Program-made: the position numbers and the translations under genes
Notes under the pieces: generated by a model
Told to the model about the DNA's origin: nothing
The model's database searches: none
What the model saw: the letters and a program-made list of their open reading frames with translations, nothing else
NCBI RefSeq assembly: GCF_003044185.1
Contig: NZ_PYYB01000001.1
Location: forward strand, 1,302,001-1,366,000
DNA from: Paraconexibacter algicola
GTDB taxonomy: Bacteria; Actinomycetota; Thermoleophilia; Solirubrobacterales; Solirubrobacteraceae
DNA length: 64,000 nt
Direction of reading: 5' to 3'
In this document: piece after piece, positions 1 to 56,594 of the stretch
How positions within the stretch are numbered: the stretch's first letter is position 1
How the letters are laid out: every line of letters begins with the position of its first letter

Positions 1-643
1 CGGTCAGCGAGTCGATCGAGCGGCCGGTCGCGCTGATGACGCCGACGCTGAGCGACTGCTCCTCCCCGAACGGCGAGCCGATCGCCGCGACGGGCTCGCC
101 GACCGCGACGTCCTTCGTCGACCCCAGCGGCAGCGGGCGCAGCTTCAGCCCGTCGAGGTCCTCGAGCTTCAGCAGCGCCACGTCGGCGAACGGGTCGAAG
201 CCGACGATCTTCGCGCCGACCTGGTTGCCGTCCTTGAAGCGGATGAAGACGCTGCCCGCCTTCTTGATCGCCGAGCCCTCGCCGCTGGTGACGACGTGGG
301 CGTTGGTGGCGATCTCGCCGCGGTCGTTCAGCACGAACCCGGAGCCCAGGCCGCTGTCGCCGCGACCGCTCTGCCCGCCGCCCAGCCCGGTCGCGATCAC
401 GGTCACGACGCCGAGCGACTCGCGCGCGTAGATGCCGCCCGGGTCGAAGCCCTTCGCGGTCTCGCTCGTGGTCGGCCCGTCGAGGTTCTCGAGCACGTCG
501 GCGCGCGAGGACGGCACGACGACCGTCTCGGTGCGCACCTCGGCCCGGGTGTCGGAGTCGTCGTCCTTCCCGCAGCCGACGGCGAAGGCCGCACCGCCCC
601 CGAGGGCGAGGGTGGCGAGGACGACGGCGGGACGACTCGTCAT
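1..643 (-). CDS. HtrA/DegP-like trypsin-type serine protease, lipoprotein (C-terminus outside window)
   Basis: The visible part begins with a lipoprotein signal: a hydrophobic stretch ending in AVGC followed by KDDDSD. After a low-complexity linker comes a trypsin-like fold with the catalytic His in TNAHVV (about residue 110) and the catalytic Asp in DPFADVALLKL. The Ser motif and any PDZ domain lie beyond base 1. The start codon overlaps the stop of the sensor kinase gene (ATGA), so the two are translationally coupled. Order regulator-kinase-HtrA recalls the mycobacterial MprAB-PepD arrangement, which suggests an envelope protein-quality role at the outer face of the membrane. Family assignment is secure; the membrane-anchored form is inferred from the lipobox. 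Confidence 0.88.
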   Translation of the reverse strand, partial: MTSRPAVVLATLALGGGAAFAVGCGKDDDSDTRAEVRTETVVVPSSRADVLENLDGPTTSETAKGFDPGGIYARESLGVVTVIATGLGGGQSGRGDSGLGSGFVLNDRGEIATNAHVVTSGEGSAIKKAGSVFIRFKDGNQVGAKIVGFDPFADVALLKLEDLDGLKLRPLPLGSTKDVAVGEPVAAIGSPFGEEQSLSVGVISATGRSIDSLT

Positions 644-46802: not shown

Positions 46803-46996
46803 GAGCCGACCTCGGAGGGCTCGCGCGCGGCGAGCTCCTCCTTCTGGCGGTCGACGATCTCGTGCAGCTCGACGAGCTCGCGCTCCATCCGGCTGATCCG
46901 CAGCGCCATGATCCCGATGTAGATCAGCAGCAGGAGCAGCAGGACGAGATAGGCGGCGACGACGTAGCCGCCCTTGTCGGGGAGCGTCTCGGTCAC
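46799..46996 (-). CDS. CcmD-like small membrane protein
   Basis: The 65-residue product has one membrane segment (YVVAAYLVLLLLLLIYIGIM) followed by a charged helix RISRMERELVELHEIVDRQK. Size, position after ccmC and topology fit CcmD, which helps load heme onto CcmE via the CcmABC complex. The family is too short and variable for a sequence-only call. GTGA overlaps occur on both sides. Confidence 0.7.
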   Translation of the reverse strand: MTETLPDKGGYVVAAYLVLLLLLLIYIGIMALRISRMERELVELHEIVDRQKEELAAREPSEVGS

Positions 46997-47736
46997 GACG
47001 CGGCCTCCGGGGCATCGAAGTGGCGCGGAGCGGCGGAGCGCCCGTAGGCCACCTCGTCGTCCCCGAGCTTGCGCTTGAGCGCGCGCAGCCGGAAGCGCGT
47101 GTTCTTGGCGGTCAGCTCGAACCGCCACAGGAAGACGTAGAGCATCCCGATCGCGAGGATCCCCGCGAGGAACGCGACGTTCATCTCCGGCGTCAGGCCG
47201 CTGCCCGACGTCGTCAGGACCCGCGGATGGATGTACGCGTCCGCGAGCCGCACCGCGAGGAAGTTCACCGGCACGAAGGCGCCCGCGGTGATCGCGAACA
47301 CCGACGCGTACCGCGCCTGACGCTCCGGGTCCTCGATCGAGAACCGCATCGGCTGGTAGGTGCAGAACAGCAGGAAGACGATCAGGAAGCTCACGAGCGT
47401 CGCCTCGCGCCACTCCCACCAGACGCCCCAGGCGGCGTTCGCCCAGATCATCCCGGTGATCAGCGCGCCGGTCCCGAAGATCAGCGACAGGTGGATCGCC
47501 GTGTAGCTCTTCAGGTCGTACCGGGGGTCGCGCGTGCGCAGGTGCTTGATCGCCATGACGCCGCCGAAGATGAAGCCGAGCAGCGTCACGATCGCCAGCG
47601 GGACGTGGACGTAGATGATCTTCTGCGAGATCCCCTCGGCCGCGGCCATCGGCGCGTACCAGCCGGCCAGCGCAAACGCCCCGATCAGGGCGACGAGGGT
47701 GGCGATCGACAGAGGGCGGAGTCGGGTGCCGTACAT
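46993..47736 (-). CDS. ccmC: Cytochrome c maturation heme-handling protein CcmC
   Basis: The 247-residue protein has about six membrane segments, the conserved Trp-rich heme-binding loop WGVWWEWRE and flanking His residues (YVHVPLAI and AIHLSLIFG). CcmC presents heme to the chaperone CcmE in system I. It follows ccmB by 14 bp. ccmE, ccmF and ccmH are not seen here. Confidence 0.92.
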   Translation of the reverse strand: MYGTRLRPLSIATLVALIGAFALAGWYAPMAAAEGISQKIIYVHVPLAIVTLLGFIFGGVMAIKHLRTRDPRYDLKSYTAIHLSLIFGTGALITGMIWANAAWGVWWEWREATLVSFLIVFLLFCTYQPMRFSIEDPERQARYASVFAITAGAFVPVNFLAVRLADAYIHPRVLTTSGSGLTPEMNVAFLAGILAIGMLYVFLWRFELTAKNTRFRLRALKRKLGDDEVAYGRSAAPRHFDAPEAAS

Positions 47737-47750
47737 GGTTGGCGGGACCT

Positions 47751-48458
47751 CTAGTCGTCGAGCAGGAAGTCGAACACGGCGTAGGCGAGGAGCCCGAAGA
47801 TCAGATCATAGAGCGCGAGGACCGCAGGCCACCGGCCCGCAACCGCCATCGCGCCCTCCTGGGCCAGGAGCGGCGCGATGCCGTTCGCCAGGCAGATGAT
47901 CACCGGCACGAGCAGCGGCAGGGCGATCAGCGGCAGGATCAGGTCGCGCGCCCGCGTCTGGATCGACAGCGCGCCGACGAGCGCGCCGATGATCGCGATC
48001 CCCAGGTCGGCGAGCGCCAGCATCCCGACCAGCCGCAGCCACTCGCCGGCGTCCGGGGTCGGGCCCAGCAGCAGCACGGCGAACGCCGGGAGCATCACGA
48101 CCTCGAGCACGACGAGGAACGCGAGGAAGCTCAGGACCTTCGCGACGAACAGCGACGTGCGGTCGACCGGGGCGAGCAGCAGCGCGTCGAAGCCGCCCTC
48201 CTCCTTGTCGGAGACGAACAGGCGGTTGGCGCCGAGCATCGCGGCGAACAGCAGCGTCACGCTCAGCACGCCCGCCGCCAGCGGCCCCTCGACCGTGCGC
48301 TGGTCCAGGCCGAAGTGGAAGATCACGAACGTCGTGATGCTGAAGAGGCCCATGGCCGGCACGACCTGCGGGACCTTGCGCTCGAGCAGCAGCTCCTTGC
48401 GCAGCAGGGCGGCGACCGCCGCGCGGCTCGGGGTGGTGCGGCCGGTCGTCGCGCTCAC
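47751..48458 (-). CDS. ccmB: Heme exporter membrane protein CcmB
   Basis: The 235-residue membrane subunit starts at GTG 48458, overlapping the ccmA stop. It has about six hydrophobic segments and the CcmB patterns LLRKELLLERK, FGLDQRT and VSDKEEGGFDALLLAPVDR. With CcmA it forms the ABC part of the CcmABCD complex that releases heme-loaded CcmE. Confidence 0.9.
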   Translation of the reverse strand: MSATTGRTTPSRAAVAALLRKELLLERKVPQVVPAMGLFSITTFVIFHFGLDQRTVEGPLAAGVLSVTLLFAAMLGANRLFVSDKEEGGFDALLLAPVDRTSLFVAKVLSFLAFLVVLEVVMLPAFAVLLLGPTPDAGEWLRLVGMLALADLGIAIIGALVGALSIQTRARDLILPLIALPLLVPVIICLANGIAPLLAQEGAMAVAGRWPAVLALYDLIFGLLAYAVFDFLLDD

Positions 48459-49138
48459 CGGTACAGCTCCCCGATCTCGTCGACGGACACCTCGGCGGCC
48501 GGCCGCAGCAGCACCTGCTTGCCGCGGCGCAGGCCGAGCGCGAGGTCGCCGTCCGCCAGTCCGCCCGCCGGGTCGTGGCTCGTGACGATCCGCGTGCGGC
48601 CCGACGCGCGGCCGATCAGCGGCTCGACGAGCTCGATCGCCGCCGGGTCGAGGTTCGACAGCGGCTCGTCGAGCAGCAGGATCTCCGGGTCGTGCAGCAC
48701 CGCCCGGCAGACCGCCGCGCGCTGCACCATGCCCCGCGAGTAGGTGTGCACCGGGTCGTTCGCGCGCACGCGGAGCTTCACCGCCTCCAGGAGCTCCTCG
48801 ATGCGGTCGTCGCCGACCCCGTGCAGGCGCGCGTGGAAGCGCAGGTTCTCGCGCGCGCTCAGGTCCCGGTACAGCAGCGGCTCGTGGGTCAGCAGGCCGA
48901 CGCGCGAGCGGACCGCCCACGCCCGGTCGGGCAGCGCCTCGCCGAGCAGCTCGACCACGCCGCGGTGCGGGCGCAGCAGGGTGGCGAGGACCCGCAGCAG
49001 CGTCGACTTGCCCGCGCCGTTGGGACCGAACACCACGAGCGAGGCGCCCGCCGGGACCGCGAGCGTCAGGTCGTCGAGCACCACGCGCTCGCCGAACCGG
49101 CGGACGAGCCCGCGCAGGACGACGGCGTCAGTCGGCAT
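48455..49138 (-). CDS. ccmA: Heme exporter ABC ATPase CcmA
   Basis: The 227-residue ATPase has Walker A GPNGAGKST, a Q-loop region LLTHEPLLYRDLSARENL, signature YSRGMVQRAAV (Ser-Arg-Gly in place of Ser-Gly-Gly, as in many CcmA proteins) and Walker B ILLLDEPLSNLD. The neighbouring ccmB and ccmC identify it as CcmA. Its first 11 bp overlap the end of the moaB-like gene. Confidence 0.9.
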   Translation of the reverse strand: MPTDAVVLRGLVRRFGERVVLDDLTLAVPAGASLVVFGPNGAGKSTLLRVLATLLRPHRGVVELLGEALPDRAWAVRSRVGLLTHEPLLYRDLSARENLRFHARLHGVGDDRIEELLEAVKLRVRANDPVHTYSRGMVQRAAVCRAVLHDPEILLLDEPLSNLDPAAIELVEPLIGRASGRTRIVTSHDPAGGLADGDLALGLRRGKQVLLRPAAEVSVDEIGELYR

Positions 49139-49628
49139 CGTGGTGGCCGCCGGCGCGACGGCCGCCCTGCCGCTGCGCCGTGGCGACGGCATGGCGCAGG
49201 ACCGGGGCGATCACGGGGAACAGCTCGTCCAGCGCCTTCGGGCTGCCCGGCAGGTTCACGACGAGCGTCCCGCCGACGAGCCCGCTGACCCCGCGCGACA
49301 GCATCCCCATCGGCGTGTGGCGCAGCGACTCCGCGCGCAGCGCCTCGGCGATCCCGGGCACCTCGCGGTCGAGCGCCGCGCGGGTCGCCTCCGGGGTGAC
49401 GTCGTCGGGCGTCAGCCCCGTCCCCCCGGTGGTCAGGACGAGCGCGAACCCCGCGTCGGCGTAGTGGTGCAGCCGGTCCTCGATCAGCGCGGCGTCGTCC
49501 GGGAGGACCTCCATGGCCGCCACGTCGGCGCCCGCCTGTTCGGCGAGGTGTGCCAGGTGCGGGCCGCCGACGTCCTCGCCGCGGGCGGCGGCGACGGACG
49601 TGGAGACGGTGATCACGGCGGTCCGCAT
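49128..49628 (-). CDS. Molybdenum cofactor biosynthesis protein MoaB/MogA
   Basis: The 166-residue protein adenylates molybdopterin or acts in molybdate insertion. It has TVSTSVAAARGEDVGG, LVLTTGGTGLTPDDVTPEAT and LPGSPKALDELF. Whether it is MoaB or MogA by function cannot be decided. ATG 49628 is preferred because TACGCT (49638-49643, minus) lies 9 nt upstream, giving the operon a possible internal promoter after moaC. Confidence 0.9.
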   Translation of the reverse strand: MRTAVITVSTSVAAARGEDVGGPHLAHLAEQAGADVAAMEVLPDDAALIEDRLHHYADAGFALVLTTGGTGLTPDDVTPEATRAALDREVPGIAEALRAESLRHTPMGMLSRGVSGLVGGTLVVNLPGSPKALDELFPVIAPVLRHAVATAQRQGGRRAGGHHDAD

Positions 49629-49680
49629 GCGTGACGGAGCGTAGAGCGGGCGGGGCGGGCGGGGTCGTGCGGAGGACCGG

Positions 49681-50160
49681 TCACGAGCGCACCCAGTGGC
49701 CGCTGCGCCCACCGGACTTCTCCAGCAGCACGACCTCGGTGATCTCGACGCCCTTGTCGAGCCCCTTGACCATGTCGTACACGGTGAGCGCCGCGACGCT
49801 GACCGCGGTCATCGCCTCCATCTCGACACCGGTGCGCGCGGTGACCGACGCGGTGCCCGTGAGCACGATCGTGCCCGCGGCGGCGTCGATGACCCCGTCG
49901 ACCTCGACGTGGTCGAGCCCGATCGGATGGCACAGCGGGATCAGCTCGCCGGTGCGCTTGGCGGCCTGGATTCCCGCGATCCGCGCGACGCCGAGCACGT
50001 CGCCCTTCGGCGCGTCCCCGGCCGCGACGCGCGCAGCCGTCTGCGCGCCCATCCGCACCGTGGCGCGGGCGACCGCCGTGCGCGCGGTCACCGGCTTGGC
50101 GCCGACGTCCACCATGCGGGCGGTGCCATCGGCGTCGAGATGCGTCAGCTCGCCGCTCAC
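49681..50160 (-). CDS. moaC: Cyclic pyranopterin monophosphate synthase
   Basis: MoaC completes cyclic pyranopterin monophosphate in molybdenum cofactor synthesis. The 159-residue protein starts at GTG 50160 and has [51 protein letters not shown] and a late [14 protein letters not shown]. MoaA, its partner, is not in the window. The start overlaps the precorrin-2 dehydrogenase stop. Confidence 0.95.
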
Positions 50161-50903
50161 GCGGCCTGCGGCGCGTGCGCGCGCTGCGCGTCCGCGATCA
50201 GCGCGTGCACGCCGGCGCTGTCCCCGGCGCGCAGCAGCGCAATCGGGTCCGGGTCCCCGTTGACGATCGACTCGAAGAACGCCTTGCGGTCCTGGTAGGT
50301 GGGCAGCGTGCCCTTCGCCCAGCCGCGCACGTCGTTGAGCATGATCGCCAGCGTCTCGTACTCGGTGCCGAACAGCTCGCCGATCTCGCGCTTCATCCGC
50401 TTCGCCAGCGCGGGCGACGCGCCCGCAGTGGAGATGGCGATCGCCAGCGGACCCATCCGCACCAGCGCGGGGAGGATGAAGTTGCACAGCGGCGGGACGT
50501 CGACGATGTTCACGAGCATGGCGCGGCGCTCCGCGTCGTCGTAGATGCGGATGTTCACGTCGGTGTCGTCGGTGCACGCGATGACCATGAAGATGCCCTC
50601 GAGGTCCTCCGGCCCGGCGTACTCGCGCTGCTCCCAGCGGATCGAGCCCTCGCGGGCGAGCTCCTCGAGCTCGGGGCCCGCGTCGGGGGCGATGACCGTG
50701 ACGTCGCCGTCGCAGGCCAGCAGGCCCTCGGTCTTCTCCAGCCCCATGGCGCCACCCCCGATCACGAGGCAGCGGCGGCCCTTCAGCTTCAGGCACGCGA
50801 TGTAGAAGGGCGTCTGCAGCATGTCCTTCACGCAGGTCTGGTCACAGATCCCGCGCTTGAACTGGCAGACGCACTCCTTCCCGGCATAGGCGGCAGCAGG
50901 CAT
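50157..50903 (-). CDS. Precorrin-2 dehydrogenase with Cys-rich N-terminal extension
   Basis: The 248-residue protein oxidises precorrin-2 to sirohydrochlorin with NAD. The dehydrogenase part starts near residue 28 and shows [27 protein letters not shown] and [13 protein letters not shown]. Before it lies an extra segment with Cys11, 13, 20 and 24 ([14 protein letters not shown]), an arrangement that could hold a metal or Fe-S cluster. A chelatase function cannot be excluded. TACCTT (50913-50918, minus) 9 nt before ATG 50903 supports the long form. It heads the tetrapyrrole operon. Confidence 0.88.
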
Positions 50904-50938: not shown

Positions 50939-51766
50939 ATGACTCGTCCTGCCTCCAAGGAGCGGTACTTCGACGACGACGCGATGATCCGGCGCGTCCA
51001 CCGCGAGCAGACCGTCGCGCTGTGCGGCGGCCGGTCGCTGCTGCTGATGGCCGCCCATCCGGTCGCGTTCGAGGGCTTCTTCATGTCGACCGGCTCGCTC
51101 GACGAGCCGTACGAGCGCCTGCGGCGCGCCGGCCTGGTGCTCGACACCATCGCCTGGGGTCCGCGCCCGCGCGCCGACGCGATGCTCAAGCGCGTCCGCG
51201 CCATGCACCGCGCGGCGTCCGGCGAGATCCCGCACGCCGCCGGCCCGTTCCCTGCCGGCACGCCGTACCGGGCCGACGATCCCGAGCTGCTGTTCTGGAT
51301 CCTCGCGTCGCTCGTCGACTCCGCCCTGCTCGTCTACGAGCGCTGCGTGCGCTCGCTCGACGACGCCGAGCGCGAGGCGTACTGGCAGGACTACCGGGTG
51401 ATCGGCAAGTGCTTCGGCATCCCGTACAAGGCGATGCCGCGCACGATCGACGACTTCGACGACTACATGGCGCGGATGCTCGCCTCCGACGAGCTGCACG
51501 TGACGCCGCAGGCGCGCGAGCTCGGCATCCAGATCGTGCTCAACCCGCCCGTGCCGCTGGCGCTGCGTCCGGTCGTCGAGCTGGCCAACCAGGTGACCGT
51601 CGGCTGGCTTCCGCCGCGCATCCGCAAGATGTACGGCCTGCGCTGGGATCCCGCCCGGGCGGTCGCGCTGCGCGGCGGCGCCGAGTACGCGAAGCGGGTC
51701 GTCGTGCCGCTGCTGCCCGACAGGCTGCGGCTCGTGCCGAGCGCTCGGCAGGCCGCCGCAGCCTGA
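50939..51766 (+). CDS. DUF2236 (MpaB-like) oxygenase-family protein
   Basis: The 275-residue protein fits the DUF2236 family: RYFDDDAMIRRVHREQTVAL, LLLMAAHPVAFEG, a central RADDPELLFWILASLVDSA and later YKAMPRTIDDFDDYMARML. Some relatives bind heme through a conserved His and act as latex-degrading or ergosterol-type oxygenases. The His of HPVAFEG is a candidate ligand. Substrate unknown. It is divergent from the tetrapyrrole operon with 35 bp between starts. Confidence 0.85.
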   Translation: MTRPASKERYFDDDAMIRRVHREQTVALCGGRSLLLMAAHPVAFEGFFMSTGSLDEPYERLRRAGLVLDTIAWGPRPRADAMLKRVRAMHRAASGEIPHAAGPFPAGTPYRADDPELLFWILASLVDSALLVYERCVRSLDDAEREAYWQDYRVIGKCFGIPYKAMPRTIDDFDDYMARMLASDELHVTPQARELGIQIVLNPPVPLALRPVVELANQVTVGWLPPRIRKMYGLRWDPARAVALRGGAEYAKRVVVPLLPDRLRLVPSARQAAAA

Positions 51767-51820: not shown

Positions 51821-53215
51821 ATGGATGTGCGGGGGCACTGGATGCTCGGGGTCGTGGTCGGACTGCTGCTCGGCGCAGCACCGGCGCAGGCCCGTGACTA
51901 CGACGGGGGCAAGGCGTTCTTCACGACGCCGATCGCCGGGGACGCGACGACGGACCCGCGCAGCGGCGACTGGGTCGCCGGGATGCGCAACGCCAGCCGC
52001 TACCCGTACGTGAACGGGCCGACGAACCTGTTCGCCCCGCCCGTCTACGACGTCACCTCCAGCACGCCCGAGCGGCTGGTGCGCTGCCGCTTCTGCGGCG
52101 CCTACACCGGCACGGGCGAGACGAAGTACGAGGACCGGGTGAAGGTCCCGATCCCCGACGGCGCGATCCCGGACCCCAGCGAGGACGGGCACATCGCGTT
52201 CGTCGACCGCGCGCGCGGCCTCGAGTGGAACCTCATCAACGCCCACGACAACGGCGACGGCACCTGGCGCGCCGGCGGGGCGGGCCAGTTCTCGCTCGCG
52301 GGCGACGGGCACCAGAACGTCGCGCTCGGTGGCGGCAGCGCCACCGGCTCGCACCTGCCGCTCAGCCAGGCGATCTCCACCGACGAGGTCCAGGCCGCGA
52401 TCGCCGACGGCAGCTACCTGATCCCGCACGCGCTCCAGTTCGGGGCGCCCAACATCGACGGGCGCTGCTGGGTCTACCCGGCCCTCGGCAGCGACGGCAA
52501 CGTCCGCGGCGGCCTGCCGGAGGGCGCGCGGATCCAGCTCGACCCCCTGCTCGACGTCAGCACGCTGCCGCCCGGTCCCCGGGTCCTGGCGCGCACCCTC
52601 CAGGTCTACGGGGCGTACCTGCGCGACCTCTCCGGCGCGTTCGCCTTCTACCTGCGCCCGCAGCGCGGCAGCGCGCCCGCCTGGTCGACGCTCGGCATCG
52701 ACGGCGACGCGCTCCAGACGATCCCGACCGAGCGGTTCCGGGTGCTGACCGTGAACTACGCCACGATCGGGACCGACCAGCCCAAGGTCCAGCGGCCCGA
52801 CCGCTCCTGCGGCCCCGGCGCCGACCAGGTCGCGCCGCAGCAGCAGCGCGGCTCGTCCACGGTGCAGGGCGCGGGCACCACCACCGGCAGCGGGGGTTCC
52901 ACCACGCGGCCCGGCGCAGCGGACCGGGCGCGGGGCGCCCGGCCGCTCGCGCCCCGCAACCTGTTCGTCCGGGTCCGGGACGTGCGCGGCGTGCGGCGCG
53001 TGCAGTTCGTCTGGTACGCCCGGCAGTCGCCGTCCGAGGTTCCCCGCTACCGGCTCTACGTCGACGGCAAGCTGCGCGCGACCGTGCCGCGGACGTACAC
53101 CGGGTACCTGCGGATCCCGCCCGGCCGCCACGTCGCGACCGTCGCCGGCGTCTCGCGGACCGGGGTGGTCGGCGTGCGGCGCGCACCGGGCGTGCGCTTC
53201 ACCGTCCCGGGCTGA
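51821..53215 (+). CDS. Secreted protein of unknown function
   Basis: I do not recognise a family. The 464-residue product has a signal peptide (MLGVVVGLLLGAAPAQA). The mature N-terminal part is rich in Gly, Asp and aromatic residues, with CRFCGAY and GRCWVYPAL. A disordered Gln/Ser/Thr/Gly linker (about 340-375) follows, then a C-terminal beta domain with RDVRGVRRVQFVWYARQ and VPRYRLYVDGKL that looks like a fibronectin-III-type module. TAGAAC (51807-51812) is 8 nt before the ATG. It probably acts at the cell surface. Confidence 0.68.
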   Translation: MDVRGHWMLGVVVGLLLGAAPAQARDYDGGKAFFTTPIAGDATTDPRSGDWVAGMRNASRYPYVNGPTNLFAPPVYDVTSSTPERLVRCRFCGAYTGTGETKYEDRVKVPIPDGAIPDPSEDGHIAFVDRARGLEWNLINAHDNGDGTWRAGGAGQFSLAGDGHQNVALGGGSATGSHLPLSQAISTDEVQAAIADGSYLIPHALQFGAPNIDGRCWVYPALGSDGNVRGGLPEGARIQLDPLLDVSTLPPGPRVLARTLQVYGAYLRDLSGAFAFYLRPQRGSAPAWSTLGIDGDALQTIPTERFRVLTVNYATIGTDQPKVQRPDRSCGPGADQVAPQQQRGSSTVQGAGTTTGSGGSTTRPGAADRARGARPLAPRNLFVRVRDVRGVRRVQFVWYARQSPSEVPRYRLYVDGKLRATVPRTYTGYLRIPPGRHVATVAGVSRTGVVGVRRAPGVRFTVPG

Positions 53216-53230: not shown

Positions 53231-54835
53231 TCAGCGGTTGCGCAGCGTGCGGGCGACCCGCAGCGCCACGCGACCGGCGGGCAGCGCGCCCTGGCGCAGC
53301 GCGCGGTCCCGGTCGGGCTCGCGGCGCGAGCGGGCCTCGGCGATCGCCCGGGCCGCGCGCGCGACCTGCTCGTCGTAGGGGAACCAGAAGAACGGCCGGC
53401 CGCGCGGCGGGTCCCAGGTGACGACCTTCGGCTCGGCGCAGGTGCGCAGCGCGATCGCGCCGCGCGCGCGGCCGATGCCCGACCCCTGCACCCCACCCCA
53501 CGGGATCTGCGGGGCGCTGCGCGCGACGAGGTGGTCGTTCATCCAGACCATGCCGACGCGCAGCTGCCGCGCGATCCGCTGGCCCTTGTACTTGTCGGCG
53601 GTCCAGACCGAGGCGCCGAGGCCGAGATCGCAGTCGTTGGCGCCCGCGATCGCCTCCTCCTCGCTGTCGACGACGGTGATCGACAGCACCGGTCCGGGGA
53701 CCTCCTCGCGCCACATCCGCATCTGCGGCGTCACGCCCGTGAGGACCGCGGGAGCGACGAACGCGCCGCTGAGGCCCTCGACGGCGGCGCTGCCGCCGGT
53801 GTGGAGCGTCGCGCCGGAGCCGACCGCGTCCTCGAGCAGCTCCCGCACGCGGGCGGCGCGCTCCCCGCCGACGAGCGGACCGATCTGCGTGGCGTGGTCG
53901 CGCGGGTCGCCGACCCGCAGCGCGGCGGTCGCGTCGAGCACGCCGCGCAGGAACCGGTCGGCGACCTCGCGCAGGACGAACACCCGCTCGATGCTGCCCC
54001 CCGACTGGCCGGCGTTCGCGAACGCGCCCCAGACCGCGCCGTGCGCCGCCCGGTCGACGTTCGCGTCCGCGCAGACGATCGCCGCGTCCTTGCCGCCGAG
54101 CTCGAGCACGCTGCGCTTCAGGCCGCGCGCGCACGCCTCGTTGACGTCGCGACCCGCGAGCAGCGAGCCGGTGAAGCGGATCTGCGCGACCGGCGCGTCG
54201 ACGAGCGCGCCCCCGACGTCGGCGTGACCGTGCGCGATCCGCAGCAGTCCCTCCGGCAGACCGGCACGTGCGAACACGCGCGCGATCCGCTCGCCCGCCA
54301 GGCACGCGTGCGGGGACGGCTTGAGCACGACGCCGTTGCCCGCCATCAGGGCGACGGCGACGTCGCCCAGCGGGGTGGCGAACGGCTCGGTCGCCGGCCC
54401 GATCACGCCCACGACGCCCAGCGGCTCGTAGGACCAGCGGGCCCGCGTGAGCGGGCGCAGCACGCGCGAGACGTGCGCCTTCTCGCCGGCGAGGATCTTC
54501 GGGCCCGCCTCGGCGAGCCACTGGAGCGTCTCGACCGCCGGGAGGATCTCCATCAGCTCGACCTCGGCACGCGGACGGCCCTGCTCCCGGCACAGCAGCT
54601 CGGCGATCTCCGCGGTCTCGTCGATCACCGCCTGCGCGGCGCGCTCCATGTAGCGGGCGCGGTCGCGGATGCGCAGCTGCGCCCAGAGCCGCTGGACCGC
54701 GGCCGCTCCGCGGACGACCTCGGCGACGTCCCGCGGCCGCGTCGTCGTCACGGACCCGAGGACCTCACCGGTCGCGGGGCTGTGGGCCTCCAGGACGGTC
54801 GCGGCGTCGGGGGCGGCGGTGCTGGCGTCGGCCAT
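53231..54835 (-). CDS. Aldehyde dehydrogenase homologue lacking the catalytic cysteine
   Basis: The 534-residue protein has the full ALDH fold: GNGVVLKPSPHA, QIRFTGSLLAGRDV, the Glu motif LELGGKDAAIV, EEVPGPVLSI and WGGVQGSGIGR. Two catalytic positions differ. The usual GQxC nucleophile site reads FANAGQSGGSIERV, with Gly279 (codon 53999-54001) where Cys belongs. The oxyanion Asn position reads Thr149 in IGPATEPF. The frame is continuous, so this is substitution, not a frameshift. The protein may be a dead enzyme, a scaffold or one with changed chemistry. CAGAAT (54842-54847, minus) is 6 nt before the ATG. Confidence 0.85.
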   Translation of the reverse strand: MADASTAAPDAATVLEAHSPATGEVLGSVTTTRPRDVAEVVRGAAAVQRLWAQLRIRDRARYMERAAQAVIDETAEIAELLCREQGRPRAEVELMEILPAVETLQWLAEAGPKILAGEKAHVSRVLRPLTRARWSYEPLGVVGVIGPATEPFATPLGDVAVALMAGNGVVLKPSPHACLAGERIARVFARAGLPEGLLRIAHGHADVGGALVDAPVAQIRFTGSLLAGRDVNEACARGLKRSVLELGGKDAAIVCADANVDRAAHGAVWGAFANAGQSGGSIERVFVLREVADRFLRGVLDATAALRVGDPRDHATQIGPLVGGERAARVRELLEDAVGSGATLHTGGSAAVEGLSGAFVAPAVLTGVTPQMRMWREEVPGPVLSITVVDSEEEAIAGANDCDLGLGASVWTADKYKGQRIARQLRVGMVWMNDHLVARSAPQIPWGGVQGSGIGRARGAIALRTCAEPKVVTWDPPRGRPFFWFPYDEQVARAARAIAEARSRREPDRDRALRQGALPAGRVALRVARTLRNR

Positions 54836-54879: not shown

Positions 54880-55218
54880 TCAGGCCGCGGCGCTGGCGCG
54901 CTGCGCGAGCGCGTCGAGCAGCAGGGCGCGCACGCCGGGGGCGAGCGTCTCGTCGGCCAGCAGCAGGTCCGGGGCGGCCTGCCCGCGGTCGGCGCCCGCC
55001 CAGCCGGCGAGCAGCTGGTCGCTGCCGTCCCAGACGATCGCGCAGACGACGGTGCGGGCCCGCGGATCGAACCGCAGCTCGCGGGCGAGGTCGAGCTCGT
55101 CGTGCGCGAGCCCCAGCCGGCCGAGCAGGTCGCCCAGCCGCGGACGGTCCGCCGCGTGCGGGAGGCGCAGGCGCACGCGGGTGCCGTCGGGAAGGGATGT
55201 GGTGGCGTCGAGCCGCAC
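54880..55218 (-). CDS. Hypothetical protein, 112 residues (possible GNAT-like N-terminus)
   Basis: The product starts MRLDATTSLPDGTRVRLRLP and is small and soluble. The opening strand-and-helix pattern (DGTRVRLRLPHAADRPRLGD) recalls the start of GNAT acetyltransferases, but the acetyl-CoA loop is absent, so it is not a complete enzyme of that type. The start is a GTG with GAGAAG upstream. A CRP-type palindrome lies 60-80 bp before it. Confidence 0.58.
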   Translation of the reverse strand: MRLDATTSLPDGTRVRLRLPHAADRPRLGDLLGRLGLAHDELDLARELRFDPRARTVVCAIVWDGSDQLLAGWAGADRGQAAPDLLLADETLAPGVRALLLDALAQRASAAA

Positions 55219-55301: not shown

Positions 55302-56594
55302 TCAGGGCAGTCCGCGGGCGCGCCGCAGGTCCTCCACGCGCTGGCGGTGGCGCGGTTCCATGTCGTCCGGCTCGTAGAACCGCAGCCCCCGGATCGCCTC
55401 CGGGCGCACGTCCTGCGGCGTGAGGTGACCGGGCCGGTCGTGCGGGTAGTCGTAGCCGGGCTCGCGGCGGCTCGCCGACCGCAGGTAGGCGGGGGGCGGC
55501 GCCGCGCCGTGCTCGCGCACGTGGGCACGGGCGGCGTGCAGGGCGGCCCCGACCGCGTGCGACTTCGGGCTCAGCGCCAGGTGCACCGCGGCCTGCGCGA
55601 GCGGGTAGTGGGCCTCGGGCATGCCGACGAGGTGCGCGGCCTGCATCGCGGCGACCGCCACCGGCAGCGCGGTCGGATCGGCGAGGCCGATGTCCTCGCT
55701 GGCGAGGATGACCATGCGCCGCGCGATGAACCGCGGATCCTCGCCGGCCTCGAGCATCACCGCGAGGTAGTAGAGCGACGCGTCGGGATCCGACGCCCGA
55801 GTGGCCTTGATCCAGGCGCTGATCGTGTCGTAGTGCTGGTCGCCCGCCTTGTCGAACCGGATCGCGCGGCGCTGCAGCGCGTCCTCGGCGTGCGCCAGCG
55901 AGACGCTCGGCGCGCCGGAGCTGGCCGCCGTCACCGCGGCGAGCTCGAGGGCGCCGAGGGCGGTCCGCGCGTCGCCGCCGCAGCGGTCGGCCAGGAACGC
56001 GAGCGCCCCGTCGTCGGCGGGCAGCGGGACCTCCCCGCGCTCGACCGCCCGGTCGAGCAGCACGCGCACGCCGTCGGCGGTGAGCGCCTGCAGCTCGTAC
56101 AGGCGGGTCCGCGAGAGCAGCGCCGCGTTGACCTCGAAGCTCGGGTTCTCGGTCGTGGCGCCGATGAGCGTGACGAGCCCGTCCTCGACCGCCGGCAGCA
56201 GCGCGTCCTGCTGGCCCTTGTTGAACCGGTGGATCTCGTCGAGGAAGAAGACGGTCGGCTGGCCGCCGCGGCGCCGCTCGGTCGCGCGCGCCATCACCGC
56301 CCGGACCTCGGCGCGACCCGCCTCGACGGCACTGAGCTCCTCGAACGCGGCGCTGGCCGCGCGCGCGACGATGCGCGCGAGCGTCGTCTTGCCCGTGCCC
56401 GGTGGACCGTAGAGGAGCATCGAGTGCGGGCGCCCGGTCTCGATCGCGGTGCGCAGCGCGCTGCCGGGGGCGAGCAGGTGGTCCTGCCCGACGACGTCGG
56501 CGATCGTGCGCGGGCGCAGGCGCGCGGCGAGCGGCGCGTCGCGGGACGGCGGCGGCTCCTCCGGGGTCGGTTCGGGTGCGAACAGCTGGTCCAC
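55302..56594 (-). CDS. rarA: Replication-associated recombination protein A (MgsA/RarA/WRNIP1 family)
   Basis: The 430-residue AAA+ ATPase acts at stalled replication forks. It has LRPRTIADVVGQDHLLAPGS, Walker [13 protein letters not shown], Walker B VFFLDEIHRFNKGQQ, sensor IGATTENPSFEVN, and the C-terminal tetramerisation region with KATRASDPDASLYYLAVML and ASEDIGLADP. The start is GTG 56594; no ATG lies nearby in frame. Confidence 0.94.
   Translation of the reverse strand: MDQLFAPEPTPEEPPPSRDAPLAARLRPRTIADVVGQDHLLAPGSALRTAIETGRPHSMLLYGPPGTGKTTLARIVARAASAAFEELSAVEAGRAEVRAVMARATERRRGGQPTVFFLDEIHRFNKGQQDALLPAVEDGLVTLIGATTENPSFEVNAALLSRTRLYELQALTADGVRVLLDRAVERGEVPLPADDGALAFLADRCGGDARTALGALELAAVTAASSGAPSVSLAHAEDALQRRAIRFDKAGDQHYDTISAWIKATRASDPDASLYYLAVMLEAGEDPRFIARRMVILASEDIGLADPTALPVAVAAMQAAHLVGMPEAHYPLAQAAVHLALSPKSHAVGAALHAARAHVREHGAAPPPAYLRSASRREPGYDYPHDRPGHLTPQDVRPEAIRGLRFYEPDDMEPRHRQRVEDLRRARGLP

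What the first reader, a model, noticed from the sequence alone, without database searches (positions are those of the whole stretch)
53231..54835. Aldehyde dehydrogenase without catalytic Cys and Asn
Gly279 replaces the nucleophile Cys and Thr149 replaces the oxyanion Asn, while the Glu motif, NAD-binding parts and frame are intact. Two independent losses at the active site with an otherwise conserved sequence suggest a retained non-dehydrogenase role.
Basis: seen in the sequence. Interest (0 to 1): 0.6.

Follow-up and report, generated by a model that had tools for sequence, protein, structure and literature searches.

The report
Conserved dead aldehyde dehydrogenase
In one family of soil actinobacteria, a gene that began as a normal aldehyde-oxidising enzyme has lost its catalytic residues, at least twice and probably three times, yet many lineages keep it intact at the same chromosomal spot, so the protein probably now does a non-enzymatic job.

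Summary
The 534-aa ORF on the minus strand (53231..54835) is an aldehyde dehydrogenase (ALDH) homologue (PF00171) with Gly279 at the catalytic Cys and Thr149 at the oxyanion Asn. It is not a sequencing error: all 40 orthologues of its clade lack the Cys (Gly, Arg, Pro or Gln instead), and none keeps the Asn. Nicotinamide-side residues equivalent to Trp168, Gln349 and Phe401 are lost too, so 'NAD-binding parts intact' is too generous.

Orthologues elsewhere in the order and class keep a full active site at the same locus (ALDH-moaC-mogA-ccmABC-hemA). The gene was therefore inactivated in place, at least twice and probably three times. Purifying selection persists (omega 0.06-0.14, against 0.06-0.10 for catalytic orthologues). 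Several sites in non-catalytic helices, mainly Arg, became fixed only in the dead clade. Other relatives deleted the gene cleanly from the locus.

Best reading: a dispensable but selected ALDH-fold pseudoenzyme acting as a binding or scaffold protein, linked by position to heme/cytochrome c/Moco genes. The partner is unknown. Dead ALDHs are known (ALDH16A1; GRM1 microcompartment AldDH), so this is a new variant of a known kind.

The parts
53231..54835 (-). ALDH-fold pseudoenzyme, 534 aa (P0001), with a ~60-aa C-terminal tail beyond the Pfam domain
   Evidence: PF00171, E 1.3e-127, residues 13-472; AlphaFold mean pLDDT 90.1
53999..54001 (-). codon 279 GGG: Gly at the catalytic Cys position
   Evidence: orthologues 23 G, 14 R, 2 P, 1 Q, 0 C
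54389..54391 (-). codon 149 ACC: Thr at the oxyanion Asn position
   Evidence: orthologues A/S/T/G/D, 0 N
54392..54394 (-). codon 148: Ala at the Trp of the PWN motif
   Evidence: 0 of 39 clade members keep Trp
53696..53698 (-). codon 380: Pro at the Phe of EEIFGP (nicotinamide contact)
   Evidence: 0 of 40 clade members keep Phe, 34 of 34 catalytic orthologues have it
53858..53860 (-). codon 326: Arg at a Gln invariant in catalytic orthologues (equivalent to ALDH2 Gln349, a nicotinamide-ribose contact, by own knowledge)
54101..54103 (-). codon 245: Glu general base, retained here and in 35 of 40 clade members
54617..54661 (-). codons 59-73, helix segment RARYMERAAQAVIDE, more conserved in the dead clade than in catalytic orthologues
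   Evidence: entropy change -0.70; 1% null -0.60; helix 56-72
53234..53356 (-). C-terminal tail, codons 494-534, helix 506-532, with newly fixed Arg505 and Asp508
55302..56594 (-). rarA-like AAA ATPase gene, upstream neighbour throughout the order (start codon inferred)
   Evidence: name from own knowledge of the family
50157..50903 (-). precorrin-2 dehydrogenase/sirC-type gene, conserved downstream neighbour
49128..49712 (-). mogA-type molybdopterin-binding gene, conserved neighbour
48455..49192 (-). ccmA-type ABC ATPase, start of the ccmABC-hemA block
46993..47736 (-). ccmC-type cytochrome c assembly gene

Best explanation
This is a pseudoenzyme: an ALDH-fold protein that can no longer perform ALDH chemistry but is kept by selection. 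SHOWN: the ancestral gene at this locus had a full ALDH active site. In the clade that includes this organism the Cys, Asn, Trp, the nicotinamide-side Phe and a Gln are all gone, while fold residues and reading frame are preserved and protein change is strongly constrained. New positions, mostly Arg, in non-catalytic helices, one strand and the tail are fixed in the dead clade. INFERRED: the protein now works by binding, most likely as a scaffold or regulatory partner, using some of the surface around helix 56-72, helix 178-190, the strand beginning at 131 and the C-terminal tail. The ancestral enzyme probably had this binding role as well as catalysis. Gene position suggests a partner in the neighbouring Moco, heme or cytochrome c maturation genes, but the identity of the partner is a guess (about 0.3).
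For: Clade-wide loss of the active site with intact frames. Orthology of active and dead forms from one fixed gene order, with one strong match per genome. Active Cys and Asn at the same ALDH-moaC-mogA-ccmABC locus outside the order, which sets the ancestral state. omega 0.06-0.14 in dead groups against 0.06-0.10 in active ones. Positions such as Arg55, Gln68, Arg131, Arg190, Arg262, Arg326 and Asp508 nearly or fully fixed in 40 dead orthologues but not in 34 active ones, and a 15-residue window (59-73) more conserved than the 1% shuffle limit. Confident ALDH fold (pLDDT 90.1; closest solved structure a succinate semialdehyde dehydrogenase, TM 0.82/0.92). A shrunken 423-aa relative in G012 keeps the N-terminal helix segment and the tail while losing catalytic loops.
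Against: No partner, ligand, expression or phenotype data exist. The gene has been cleanly deleted from the same locus in several relatives, so the role is not essential. GC content at codon positions 1 and 2 rose by about 0.08-0.12 in dead forms but only about 0.01-0.03 in control genes, which points to partial relaxation of constraint. Neighbourhood alone does not prove a shared pathway. The omega values rest on strongly diverged sequences, so synonymous change is close to saturated.
Confidence: 0.72

Rival explanations
1. Slowly decaying gene: catalysis became dispensable, and what is seen is weak residual selection (for example against misfolding) on the way to deletion, with no specific new role.
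For: Clean deletions at the same locus in G040, G025, G022, G013, G026 and G016, a 35%-identical form in G017 and a 423-aa form in G012; drift to GC-rich amino acids and a net charge change from about -12 to +6.6 that neighbouring genes do not show.
Against: omega 0.06-0.14 over a deep clade, 52 columns fixed in both active and dead forms, and newly fixed sites. Bacterial pseudogenes do not normally stay intact over genus- to family-level divergence (own knowledge).
Confidence: 0.13
2. Nucleotide-bound sensor: it still binds NAD(P)(H) or ADP-ribose by the adenosine half and reports redox state to a partner.
For: Lys172, Gly223 and Ser224 are retained in this protein and in 30, 40 and 36 of 40 clade members.
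Against: The Lys is replaced by His, Ala or Thr in 10 of 40; the nicotinamide-side residues are lost throughout.
Confidence: 0.09
3. New enzyme activity: the pocket was rebuilt for a different, non-Cys chemistry using the retained Glu245 or a new residue.
For: Glu245 kept in 35 of 40 dead forms; Gly280 fixed in 40 of 40.
Against: Active-site segments became the most variable relative to catalytic orthologues (residues 239-253 and 374-388, entropy +0.94 and +0.99). The neighbouring Cys278 occurs in only 7 of 40 and no new nucleophile is conserved. The Cys position itself varies between G, R, P and Q.
Confidence: 0.05
4. Sequencing or assembly error at codon 279.
For: A single base separates TGC (Cys) or TGG-like codons from GGN in principle.
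Against: Shared by 40 orthologues in independent genomes, with the Asn, Trp and Phe also changed.
Confidence: 0.01

Closest known systems
Canonical NAD(P)-dependent ALDHs (Pfam PF00171; closest solved fold 5vbf succinate semialdehyde dehydrogenase)
   Same: Fold, domain layout, general-base Glu, adenosine-side NAD residues; the C-terminal tail is shared with the catalytic orthologues
   Different: No Cys nucleophile, no oxyanion Asn, no nicotinamide-side Phe or Trp; no NCBIfam equivalog reaches its cut-off
Vertebrate ALDH16A1 pseudoenzyme (PMC10650815)
   Same: ALDH-fold protein lacking catalytic residues, kept by evolution, reported to work through protein interactions
   Different: Animal protein from a separate loss; here a single-domain bacterial gene whose active orthologues sit at the same locus in related bacteria
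Second AldDH of GRM1 bacterial microcompartments (PMC4207490)
   Same: Bacterial AldDH with the catalytic Cys replaced (Ser or Pro), proposed scaffold or regulator
   Different: That one is an extra paralogue beside an active AldDH in a microcompartment locus; here the sole orthologue was inactivated in place and the neighbours are cytochrome c/heme/Moco genes
Thermus thermophilus ALDH with C-terminal arm (PMC6127216)
   Same: C-terminal extension ending in a helix beyond the oligomerisation domain
   Different: That enzyme is active; whether the tail here binds the opposite monomer was not tested

Membership tests
ALDH superfamily (homology) | Full-length PF00171 match and ALDH fold | tested here: met
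ALDH superfamily (functional enzyme) | Catalytic Cys nucleophile | tested here: not met
   Gly279
ALDH superfamily (functional enzyme) | Oxyanion Asn | tested here: not met
   Thr149
ALDH superfamily (functional enzyme) | General-base Glu | tested here: met
   Glu245
ALDH superfamily (functional enzyme) | Nicotinamide-side NAD residues (Trp, Phe, Gln) | tested here: not met
   Ala148, Pro380, Arg326
ALDH superfamily (functional enzyme) | NAD(P)-dependent aldehyde oxidation | not testable with these tools
   needs purified protein
ALDH pseudoenzyme (as ALDH16A1) | Catalytic residues lost, protein under purifying selection | tested here: met
ALDH pseudoenzyme (as ALDH16A1) | Function through protein-protein interaction | not testable with these tools
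   no interaction data
GRM1 microcompartment second AldDH | Gene lies in a microcompartment locus beside an active AldDH | tested here: not met
   neighbours are rarA, sirC, moaC/mogA, ccmABC, hemA

The most novel reading that the evidence does not exclude
A bacterial ALDH whose ancestral form already had a binding role in cytochrome c/heme/Moco assembly, so that catalysis could be lost repeatedly in place while a new Arg-rich interaction surface was selected.
Probability: 0.2. Interest if true: 0.75.

Novelty: new variant of a known kind. Interest (0 to 1): 0.5.

Why it matters
Known dead ALDHs are isolated examples. Here active, dead, shrunken and deleted versions of one orthologous gene lie at one locus across a bacterial order. 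The succession of states can therefore be read directly, and the question of what the enzyme did besides catalysis becomes testable by swapping active and dead orthologues. It also warns that automatic annotation of these genes as aldehyde dehydrogenases is probably functionally wrong.

Tried and rejected
Sequencing error: rejected by 40 independent orthologues. Shifted nucleophile (Cys278): present in 7 of 40 only. Ancient paralogue rather than orthologue: disfavoured because each genome has one strong match in the same gene order. Basic charge as evidence for nucleic-acid binding: dropped, because GC-biased relaxation can produce the same shift. rarA as the key functional link: weakened, because rarA was not seen beside the catalytic gene in four genomes outside the order, where moaC/mogA and ccm genes still are. 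YN00 pairwise dN/dS was mostly unusable because synonymous sites are saturated. Literature searches found nothing specific to this gene in this group.

Full report
OBSERVATION. The ORF 53231..54835 (-) is open, 534 aa. Codon 279 (53999-54001) is GGG and codon 149 (54389-54391) is ACC. PF00171 covers residues 13-472 with E 1.3e-127. No NCBIfam equivalog reaches its cut-off. Against catalytic orthologues, NAGQTCSG becomes NAGQSGGS, PWNYP becomes PATEP, and EEIFGP becomes EEVPGP. Seven other ALDHs found in the same genome keep Cys and Asn.

NOT AN ERROR, NOT ALONE. The family search found a strong match in 41 of 121 genomes, one per genome, and the order search in 110 of 201. In the 40 dead orthologues of the family, the Cys position holds G 23, R 14, P 2, Q 1; the Asn position A 16, S 15, T 6, G 1, D 1 (one gap). 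The Phe401-equivalent is kept in 0 of 40, the Trp168-equivalent in 0 of 39, the Glu268-equivalent in 35 of 40, the Lys192-equivalent in 30 of 40 and the Glu399-equivalent in 13 of 40. ALDH2 numbering is from own knowledge. A Gln invariant in 34 catalytic orthologues is Arg in 39 dead ones, with one gap.

ORTHOLOGY AND ANCESTRY. Active and dead forms share one gene order: rarA, ALDH, (mpaB-like oxygenase), sirC, moaC, mogA, ccmA, ccmB, ccmC, hemA, hemC. Four genomes outside the order carry the ALDH next to moaC/mogA and ccm genes, with intact Cys and Asn, so the catalytic state is ancestral. The names moaC, hemA, hemC and rarA rest on the sequence and own knowledge; sirC, mogA, ccmA, ccmB and ccmC have Pfam support.

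NUMBER OF LOSSES. In the ALDH tree (catalytic columns removed) the 43 dead sequences need two losses: one for the main clade plus L133/L148, and one for L103, which is nested among active forms (98*). A tree of five neighbouring genes places L133 with active members of its own family (100*) and needs three losses. An AU test does not reject that placement for the ALDH itself (p 0.195). L133 and L148 share Arg326 and Gly459 with the main dead clade, so replacement of their gene by a dead copy is not excluded. Hence at least two losses, probably three.

SELECTION. IQ-TREE codon models give omega of about 0.13-0.14, 0.10, 0.10 and 0.06 in four dead groups and 0.10, 0.06, 0.10 and 0.06-0.08 in four active groups. 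Synonymous saturation makes these approximate. Fifty-two columns are fixed in both. Mean entropy is 0.97 in active and 1.22 in dead forms; the largest rises are at residues 239-253 and 374-388 (catalytic and NAD segments), the largest fall at 59-73, beyond the 1% shuffle limit. Positions fixed in the dead clade but not in active orthologues include Arg55, Gln68, Asp72, Arg131, Arg190, Arg262, Arg326 and Asp508. The comparison is not corrected for tree shape.

RELAXATION TOO. Mean net charge of the ALDH moved from about -12 to +6.6, while five control genes moved by at most about 3.4. GC at codon positions 1 and 2 rose from 0.67-0.69 and 0.47 to 0.79 and 0.55 in the ALDH, with small changes in controls. 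This is what partial relaxation under GC-rich mutation would give, so the charge shift is not used as evidence of function.

LOSS OF THE GENE. In several relatives the neighbourhood is present but the ALDH is missing: G040, G025, G022, G013, G026, G016. G017 holds a 35%-identical form, and G012 a 423-aa form beside rarA that keeps the N-terminal helix segment and tail but lacks the Glu245 segment and other loops. The protein is thus dispensable in some lineages.

STRUCTURE. AlphaFold from 31 homologues gives mean pLDDT 90.1 and pTM 0.88, with an ALDH layout and a C-terminal helix 506-532. Foldseek's best solved match is 5vbf, a succinate semialdehyde dehydrogenase.

MECHANISM. The most likely mechanism is binding without catalysis: the fold is retained, the pocket is dismantled, and constraint has moved to non-catalytic helices and the tail. 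A partner among the neighbouring cofactor and cytochrome c maturation genes is plausible from position alone and is not shown.

KNOWN PRECEDENTS. Human ALDH16A1 is described as a pseudoenzyme acting through protein interactions (PMC10650815). GRM1 microcompartment loci with two AldDHs have one with the Cys changed to Ser or Pro (PMC4207490). A C-terminal arm is described in Thermus ALDH (PMC6127216). No report on this gene in this actinobacterial group was found in the library searched.

Noticed in passing
window 54880..55218 (-): 112-aa ORF between rarA and the ALDH, no Pfam hit; the rarA-ALDH gap is also wide in some relatives, but whether the same gene fills it was not checked.
   Followed up: no
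window 51821..53215 (+): 464-aa ORF convergent with the ALDH, no Pfam hit, with a signal-peptide-like N-terminus; it was not among the conserved neighbours.
   Followed up: no
window 50939..51766 (+): MpaB/Lcp-type oxygenase gene (PF09995) recurs on the opposite strand beside the ALDH, or beside its empty place, in many relatives whether the ALDH is active, dead or absent.
   Followed up: partly
L212-L215: ALDH-moaC/mogA-ccm linkage is conserved outside the order in the class, suggesting an old functional link between this ALDH and cofactor or cytochrome assembly.
   Followed up: partly
L184 9037..10305: 423-aa shrunken ALDH relative beside rarA in G012, lacking catalytic loops but keeping the N-terminal helix segment and tail.
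   Followed up: partly
L103 (G209): Independent and apparently recent inactivation: Cys to Ser, Trp to Phe, Phe to Arg, Asn still present, among active close relatives.
   Followed up: partly
L131, L140, L147, L105: rarA lies in the opposite orientation next to active ALDHs in these loci.
   Followed up: no
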